Origin: Chloroflexota bacterium
Lineage (GTDB): Bacteria; Chloroflexota; Anaerolineae; Aggregatilineales; J027
Reading direction: 5' to 3'
Assembly: GCA_003697365.1 (NCBI GenBank)
Contig: RFGP01000007.1
Location: forward strand, 1 to 36,621
DNA length: 36,621 bases
Part shown: piece by piece, positions 15,013-15,377 of the stretch
Layout: every line of letters starts with the position of its first letter
Position numbering within the stretch: the first letter of the stretch is position 1
The notes under the pieces: generated by a model
The model's input: the letters and a program-made list of their open reading frames with translations, nothing else
What the model was told of the DNA's origin: nothing
Databases searched by the model: none
Translations under genes and position numbers: made by a program

Positions 15013-15052
15013 AAAAAATCCTCTTCGCCTTTTTAGGGACGAAAAGGATTTT
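15013..15052 (-). terminator. T-box intrinsic terminator, also the tRNA-Ala terminator
   Basis: On the minus strand, AAAATCCTTTTCG pairs with CGAAGAGGATTTT (one mismatch), followed by a T-run. Its 5' arm includes the TTTTCG next to CGTCCCT that the antiterminator uses, so the two folds exclude each other, as expected for a T-box. Confidence 0.88.
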
Positions 15053-15093
15053 CCGCGTTACCACCCTTATTGGTAGCTTTGTTATATATGTTG

Positions 15094-15166
15094 TGGACCC
15101 AAAGGGATTCGAACCCTTGACCTCTACAATGCCATTGTAGCGCTCTCCCAGCTGAGCTATGGGCCC
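15094..15166 (-). tRNA. tRNA-Ala, anticodon GGC, inside the T-box leader
   Basis: A complete 73-nt cloverleaf: acceptor GGGCCCA/TGGGTCC with a G3:U70 pair, the alanine identity element, and discriminator A. D-arm GCTC/GAGC; anticodon stem CTACA/TGTAG with loop ATGGCAT (A32/U38, usual for tRNA-Ala GGC); variable loop AGGTC; T-arm AAGGG TTCGAAT CCCTT. CCA is not encoded. No separate promoter is evident just upstream, so it should be transcribed from the T-box promoter. It lies between Stem IIA/B and the antiterminator, enclosed by GGTAG (15180-15176) and CTACC (15076-15072). Confidence 0.96.
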
Positions 15167-15377
15167 CTAGAAAAACTACCCACTCAAAACGTTGATAACG
15201 GTCACAAACCGCTAACACTTACTTTTCATTTCAGTGTTAGGAGCTCACGAGCGAGTTCGATCTTTAGGGCAGGTGGTTTGCTGCCATTAGCGTTACACCG
15301 CATTCGCTAACTCTCTGTACCACTGATCTACTACTCTCGATCAACGCTCAATTGATTATTGAGTTGATATTGCCTGC

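What the first reader, a model, noticed from the sequence alone, without database searches (positions are those of the whole stretch)
15013..15371. A complete tRNA-Ala(GGC) gene embedded inside a leucine T-box riboswitch
Seen: one promoter, T-box Stem I with specifier CUC, Stem II, a IIA/B-like element, then an intact tRNA-Ala with G3:U70, then the T-box sequence and terminator. The tRNA takes the place of Stem III and is framed by GGTAG (15180-15176) and CTACC (15076-15072), so it may stack as a helical arm of the riboswitch. Established: T-boxes bind uncharged tRNA with Stem I and the antiterminator on one RNA. Inference: a structured tRNA within the leader could serve as Stem III, and maturation would sever sensor from switch. 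I know of no described T-box that carries a tRNA gene for a different amino acid in this position.
Basis: partly seen in the sequence, partly recalled or inferred. Interest (0 to 1): 0.92.

Follow-up and report, generated by a model that had tools for sequence, protein, structure and literature searches.

The report
tRNA gene inside a leucine riboswitch
A complete alanine tRNA gene, usually the only one of its kind in the genome, sits inside a structural arm of the RNA switch that controls the leucine-charging enzyme; the same nested arrangement recurs in many bacteria of at least two and probably three phyla, and I found no description of it.

Summary
An Rfam T-box (99 bits, full model) covers 15353-15032 (-) and contains an intact tRNA-Ala(GGC) at 15166-15094, upstream of leuS. 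I found 93 distinct loci with a tRNA directly (8-35 nt) upstream of a T-box core. All 93 tRNAs are Ala(GGC); the downstream gene is leuS wherever checked. The specifier is CUC (Leu) in 68 of 70 readable loci. They come from Chloroflexota (44 of 400 sampled genomes), a Bacillota-like set (about 44 of 200, including Thermaerobacter marianensis) and 3 of 247 Actinomycetota-like genomes. The tRNA lies in the loop of Stem III: the published discriminator motif RRRxG-Stem III-AA frames it, and the framing helix covaries strongly (84% versus 55% paired; 0 of 500 shuffles). The embedded copy is often the genome's only tRNA-Ala(GGC). A near-consensus promoter lies before Stem I. Most likely one strong promoter feeds both products: every transcript carries pre-tRNA-Ala, while the T-box senses tRNA-Leu and decides afterwards whether leuS is transcribed. 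Processing and switching are inferred, not shown. New variant of a known kind; no description found in the open papers held, though two key T-box surveys could not be read.

The parts
15378..15406 (-). sigma-70-type promoter TTGACA-17-TAAAAT, upstream of Stem I
   Evidence: 11 of 12 matches; same position class in relatives
15239..15353 (-). T-box Stem I (tRNA-Leu anticodon-binding domain)
   Evidence: RF00230 alignment; end approximate
15253..15255 (-). specifier codon CUC (Leu); matching tRNA-Leu(GAG) gene at G000:C211
   Evidence: RF00230 alignment; tRNA-Leu(GAG); discriminator A
15181..15238 (-). Stem II and IIA/B region, ending in GAGUG (15185-15181) = the RRRxG of the discriminator motif
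   Evidence: alignment; motif from PMC7583486
15172..15180 (-). Stem III 5' arm GGUAGUUUU
   Evidence: local pairing probability 0.80-1.0; covariation across relatives
15094..15166 (-). tRNA-Ala(GGC) gene in the Stem III loop; G3:U70, discriminator A, CCA not encoded
   Evidence: only Ala(GGC) copy found in this genome
15072..15080 (-). Stem III 3' arm AAAGCUACC, followed by AA (15071-15070)
15035..15067 (-). T-box core / antiterminator AGGGUGGUAACGCG...CGUCCCU with UGGU (15063-15060)
15013..15053 (-). terminator hairpin GAAAAUCCUUUUCG/CGAAGAGGAUUUUUU
   Evidence: read from the sequence
11916..14684 (-). leuS, leucyl-tRNA synthetase, 922 aa
   Evidence: Pfam editing, class I and anticodon-binding domains

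Best explanation
It is a transcription-attenuating leucine T-box whose Stem III loop is a complete tRNA-Ala(GGC) gene. One strong promoter before Stem I makes an RNA that is at once the leuS leader and the precursor of tRNA-Ala. Stem I (codon CUC) captures tRNA-Leu(GAG). The tRNA-Ala folds as the cap of Stem III. The discriminator and antiterminator then read the tRNA-Leu 3' end, and termination follows if the tRNA is charged. The tRNA-Ala lies upstream of the terminator, so every transcript, terminated or not, yields it, while leuS is made only under leucine shortage. RNase P and a 3' nuclease then cut the tRNA out, which separates the sensor half from the switch half after the decision and leaves the leuS mRNA starting near the antiterminator/terminator hairpin. 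Shown here: the anatomy, its conservation, Stem III covariation, promoter position, leuS linkage and single-copy status. Inferred: transcription through the tRNA, excision, order of events and the regulatory response.
For: T-box and tRNA covariance hits nested at one locus, and again in relatives: L134-L136, L131, L139, L149, L152, L155, L158, L059, L071, L202 at 142 bits, L180, L194, L239. 93 distinct embedded loci, all tRNA-Ala(GGC), with leuS downstream wherever the DNA held reaches it. Framing helix: at least 6 consecutive pairs in 56% of own arms versus 3.9% of swapped arms; with anchors fixed by motif alone, 84.1% of cells paired versus 55.4 +/- 2.1, 93 cells changed on both sides versus 29 +/- 6, covariation 0.773 versus at most 0.176 when slid, 0 of 500 shuffles. 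[quoted passage not shown] Promoters of at least 10/12 in 68 of 93 loci lie at least 150 nt upstream of the tRNA, typically 180-220 nt, against about 1 expected in shuffles. The embedded copy was the only tRNA-Ala(GGC) match in 14 of the genomes examined. The Stem III plus cloverleaf fold is within 0.6 kcal/mol of the minimum.
Against: No expression data. The leader as a whole does not fold significantly better than shuffles (z -1.7), and once the antiterminator is included the Stem III 3' arm can pair with the T-box core instead (Stem III probability about 0.42). In one family (f37, probably Ktedonobacteria) the motif frame is altered and a few weak promoter-like sites lie near the tRNA. In this genome a terminator-like site at 14758-14736 lies between the leader and leuS, so leuS may have a further promoter.
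Confidence: 0.78

Rival explanations
1. Neutral passenger. The tRNA once landed in the tolerant Stem III loop, became the only copy, and now cannot be lost. The T-box works as usual and the nesting has no regulatory role. (This rivals the purpose, not the anatomy, of the best explanation.)
For: Stem III loops are variable (PMC7583486). The embedded copy is often the only one. Some lineages have the tRNA outside the T-box or no recognisable T-box, so nesting is not obligatory. Stem III covariation is expected whether or not the tRNA matters.
Against: Persistence at one site with one tRNA and one target gene across deep LeuS branches, although second copies exist in several Ktedonobacteria-like genomes, is more than simple chance would suggest. 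It does not exclude entrenchment.
Confidence: 0.4
2. Processing as part of the switch. RNase P cutting of the embedded tRNA competes with tRNA-Leu sensing, makes the switch single-use and frees the trapped tRNA-Leu, so leuS expression also depends on tRNA processing.
For: Both cut sites lie in the Stem III loop between Stem I and the antiterminator. In some loci the tRNA abuts Stem III and the T-box core with about 8 nt between discriminator and core, so excision must break the sensor-switch connection.
Against: The terminator ends only about 80 nt after the tRNA here, so the decision is probably made before processing. Stem III could hold the two halves together after cutting.
Confidence: 0.12
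3. Independent tRNA gene. The tRNA-Ala has its own promoter and merely overlaps the T-box.
For: 11 loci have a promoter-like match within 150 nt of the tRNA, mostly in family f37.
Against: No such site in the window or in most loci; two of the 11 (L204, L205) are still upstream of Stem I in leaders that lack Stem II. The conserved near-consensus promoters lie before Stem I. Only about 10-30 nt separate conserved T-box sequence from the tRNA.
Confidence: 0.05
4. Chance or assembly artefact: a T-box-like match around a tRNA, or a chimeric contig.
For: None found beyond the draft state of the window's own assembly.
Against: 93 loci in many independent genomes, including complete chromosomes such as Thermaerobacter marianensis. 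Reversed-pattern controls gave only a handful of hits.
Confidence: 0.01

Closest known systems
Transcriptional T-box riboswitch (Rfam RF00230), leuS class
   Same: Stem I with Leu specifier, Stem II, IIA/B, RRRxG-Stem III-AA discriminator motif, UGGN bulge, antiterminator and terminator, upstream of leuS
   Different: The Stem III loop is a complete gene for a different tRNA (Ala GGC), so the leader is also a tRNA precursor
tRNAs co-transcribed with mRNAs or rRNAs (for example tRNAs in rRNA spacers)
   Same: One promoter, with tRNA excised from a longer RNA
   Different: Here the tRNA lies inside a structural element of a regulatory RNA rather than between genes
Processed T-box leaders such as B. 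subtilis thrS (from own knowledge, not checked here)
   Same: Cleavage upstream of the terminator hairpin can define the mRNA 5' end
   Different: There the cut is made by mRNA-decay endonucleases in the leader; here it would be tRNA maturation

Membership tests
T-box riboswitch (RF00230) | Covariance-model score above the curated cut-off over the whole model | tested here: met
   99.1 bits versus 93, model 1-219; also met in 11 relatives and in L202, L180, L194, L239. Some relatives score below the cut-off (L189, L170, L204: 78-81 bits)
T-box riboswitch (RF00230) | Specifier codon matching the amino acid of the downstream gene | tested here: met
   CUC (Leu) before leuS; CUC in 68 of the 70 loci the parser could read, 23 not read; tRNA-Leu(GAG) present
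T-box riboswitch (RF00230) | UGGN bulge complementary to the 3' end of the cognate tRNA | tested here: met
   UGGU with tRNA-Leu discriminator A; UGGU in 89 of 93
T-box riboswitch (RF00230) | 5'-RRRxG-Stem III-AA-3' discriminator motif | tested here: met
   GAGUG-GGUAGUU...AGCUACC-AA; covariation; altered frame in family f37
T-box riboswitch (RF00230) | tRNA-dependent antitermination | not testable with these tools
   needs in-vitro transcription or reporter assays
Functional tRNA-Ala gene | Cloverleaf, GGC anticodon, G3:U70 identity pair | tested here: met
   G at position 3 in 93 of 93 embedded tRNAs
Functional tRNA-Ala gene | Needed by the cell (sole copy) | tested here: met
   only Ala(GGC) match in G000 (assembly 96% complete) and in 13 other genomes
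Functional tRNA-Ala gene | Excised and charged | not testable with these tools
   needs Northern blot or tRNA sequencing

The most novel reading that the evidence does not exclude
An ancient composite RNA in which a functional pre-tRNA is a working structural arm of a riboswitch for another amino acid, and tRNA maturation physically splits sensor from switch, so that tRNA processing and leucine sensing are coupled.
Probability: 0.2. Interest if true: 0.95.

Novelty: new variant of a known kind. Interest (0 to 1): 0.88.

Why it matters
T-boxes are textbook riboswitches, yet a version with a usually single-copy tRNA gene inside it appears to have gone undescribed although it is common in Chloroflexota and in a Bacillota-like set of genomes. 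It shows that the discriminator tolerates a folded 73-nt domain on Stem III, offers a natural test of how fast the T-box decides relative to tRNA processing, and gives a plain reason for attenuation: a strong tRNA promoter can drive leuS only if a terminator holds it back. It also warns that T-box and tRNA annotations overlap.

Tried and rejected
Chance nesting: rejected by 93 loci and reversed-pattern controls. A separate tRNA promoter: none in the window, rare elsewhere. Stem III replaced by the tRNA: rejected, because its helix persists and covaries. Sensing of tRNA-Ala by the T-box: unlikely, since the readable specifiers are nearly all CUC. Free folding of the whole leader was uninformative (z -1.7). 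A competing hairpin between the Stem III 3' arm and the T-box core exists here, but by eye is absent in many relatives (arms such as GAGAGC/GCUCUC), so I did not build on it. The LeuS tree shows the embedded state on several deep branches of both phyla; a single ancient origin with many losses and repeated transfer cannot be told apart, and the sample was partly chosen for the embedded state. The literature searches found no description. Vitreschak 2008 and Gutierrez-Preciado 2009 are not held, so prior notice there cannot be excluded.

Full report
The observation. The minus-strand leader 15372-15013 carries a full RF00230 match (15353-15032, 99.1 bits, model 1-219) with a ~93-nt insertion, and the insertion is an intact tRNA-Ala(GGC), 15166-15094, 65.6 bits. 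The T-box has specifier CUC (15255-15253), UGGU (15063-15060), an antiterminator and a terminator, and precedes leuS (14684-11916). A TTGACA-17-TAAAAT promoter lies at 15406-15378, and the scan found none on this strand between Stem I and the tRNA. The genome has tRNA-Leu(GAG) with discriminator A, so the sensing partner exists.

Conservation. In LeuS loci of relatives, tRNA-Ala(GGC) sits just upstream of the T-box core again and again. A pattern that joins any tRNA T-arm to a T-box core found 58 of 400 Chloroflexota genomes. Of 49 of these loci taken up, 44 carry an intact tRNA-Ala(GGC) by ARAGORN; the other hits do not look like tRNAs. In 200 genomes of the phylum of G439 (a set that includes two records titled Bacillota or Firmicutes, and one contig of exactly 2,844,696 bp, the size of the Thermaerobacter marianensis chromosome) 48 matched and about 44 look like tRNAs. 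The 30 loci fetched from it, one of them the same site twice, are all tRNA-Ala(GGC); leuS follows in every one except that site, whose contig ends early. In 247 genomes of the phylum of G441 (Actinomycetota by record title) 3 loci are of this kind. A 2,401,520-bp contig (L202, 142 bits) is by my memory Carboxydothermus hydrogenoformans; that name is not verified. In the set examined there are 93 distinct embedded loci, and every one is tRNA-Ala(GGC). The pattern is strict, so the frequencies are lower bounds.

Where the tRNA sits. Published structures define the discriminator as 5'-RRRxG-Stem III-AA-3' followed by the antiterminator (PMC7583486; PMC7778990). In the window this reads GAGUG-GGUAGUUUU-(linker, tRNA, linker)-AAAGCUACC-AA-UA-AGGGUGG. 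In relatives the arms differ but match each other: GGTGGC/GCCACC, GATAGGCG/CGCCTATC, GATGAGCCG/CGGCTCATC, GAGCAT/ATGCTC, GGTAAATA/TATTTACC, GTCGA/TCGAC. Swapping arms between loci destroys the match (at least 6 pairs: 56% own, 3.9% swapped). With anchors fixed by motif only, six pairs in 45 distinct sequences give 84.1% paired cells (shuffled 55.4 +/- 2.1), 93 cells changed on both sides (29 +/- 6) and covariation 0.773 (slid at most 0.176), 0 of 500 shuffles reaching any of these three. Shuffles do not correct for relatedness, but the sliding control keeps it, and it agrees. So the tRNA occupies the Stem III loop, and Stem III itself is kept. A family of large genomes (f37, probably Ktedonobacteria) has an altered frame, by eye GATCNAGG/CCTTGATC-GAAAATC.

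One transcript. In 68 of 93 loci a promoter with at least 10 of 12 consensus bases lies 150 nt or more before the tRNA, mostly 180-220 nt and so just before Stem I; about 1 is expected from shuffles. Only 11 loci have one within 150 nt; two of these belong to shortened leaders in which it still precedes Stem I. Many of the Bacillota-like loci match 12 of 12. In f37 and Promineifilum-like loci the promoter precedes an additional tRNA-Ala(CGC), so the transcript would be tRNA-Ala(CGC), Stem I, tRNA-Ala(GGC), antiterminator, leuS. In 16 loci, mostly Anaerolineales-type, both tRNAs lie upstream of an ordinary leuS T-box.

The tRNA matters to the cell. In the window's genome and 13 others the embedded copy was the only tRNA-Ala(GGC) match; several Ktedonobacteria-like genomes have a second copy, and one relative (G012) has its copy away from leuS. 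G3 of the G3:U70 identity pair is present in all 93.

Mechanism. The economical reading is a strong stable-RNA promoter shared with leuS, with the T-box as the valve between them. The tRNA is finished about 80 nt before the end of the terminator, so it is produced whatever the switch decides. RNase P would then cut in the Stem III loop and part Stem I from the antiterminator. Since the decision is made at the terminator, I think excision normally follows it, but a kinetic competition is possible. Local folding gives Stem III 0.80-1.0 pairing probability before the core is made and about 0.42 after, because the 3' arm can also pair with the core; whether that matters is open.

Evolution. On a LeuS tree of 193 rows the embedded state is clustered (23 changes versus 64 shuffled) and present on deep branches of both Bacillota-like and Chloroflexota LeuS, mixed with T-box-only and no-T-box states. 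Sampling was partly on the embedded state, so I claim only that it is old and often lost or transferred.

Novelty. Eight searches of 5.39 million open papers found nothing that describes a tRNA gene within a T-box. The 2008 survey by Wels and colleagues counted six T-boxes in two Chloroflexi genomes, both Dehalococcoides, and names none of the leuS kind there. Two key surveys are not held. The parts are known kinds; the nesting is a new variant.

Noticed in passing
window 14784-14924 (-): A 46-aa ORF between the T-box and leuS; similar short proteins (..LxDRLRELLxxLxxLLxPxPxPxPVPVRxR..) occupy the same place in L011, L020, L024, L028, L030, L033 and L035, with no Pfam match for the window copy. 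Looks like an undescribed conserved small protein of these Anaerolineae.
   Followed up: partly
window 14736-14758 (-): Terminator-like hairpin between the small ORF and leuS, so leuS may have an additional promoter in this genome.
   Followed up: no
window 15599-15645: Two NrdR-box-like palindromes (ACACCATATGTGGTGT and a near copy) 31 bp apart, upstream of nrdR (15724-16260 +) and a ribonucleotide reductase gene (16391-18943 +); they lie between this operon and the divergent leuS leader promoter.
   Followed up: partly
L251 (G000:C219:12800-13600): A tRNA-Thr(CGT) gene ends about 18 nt before another T-box in the same genome, upstream of a valS-like match: a tRNA in front of, not inside, a T-box.
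   Followed up: partly
L094-L118 upstream of leuS: Tandem tRNA-Ala(CGC) and tRNA-Ala(GGC) upstream of an ordinary leuS T-box in Anaerolineales-type genomes: an alternative arrangement of the same parts.
   Followed up: partly
L203, L204, L205: Leaders that by eye lack Stem II: Stem I runs almost directly into the Stem III arm and the embedded tRNA.
   Followed up: no
L082, L085: Acidimicrobiia-titled genomes with tRNA-Ala(GGC) upstream of leuS but no T-box core found; their LeuS groups within Chloroflexota LeuS.
   Followed up: partly
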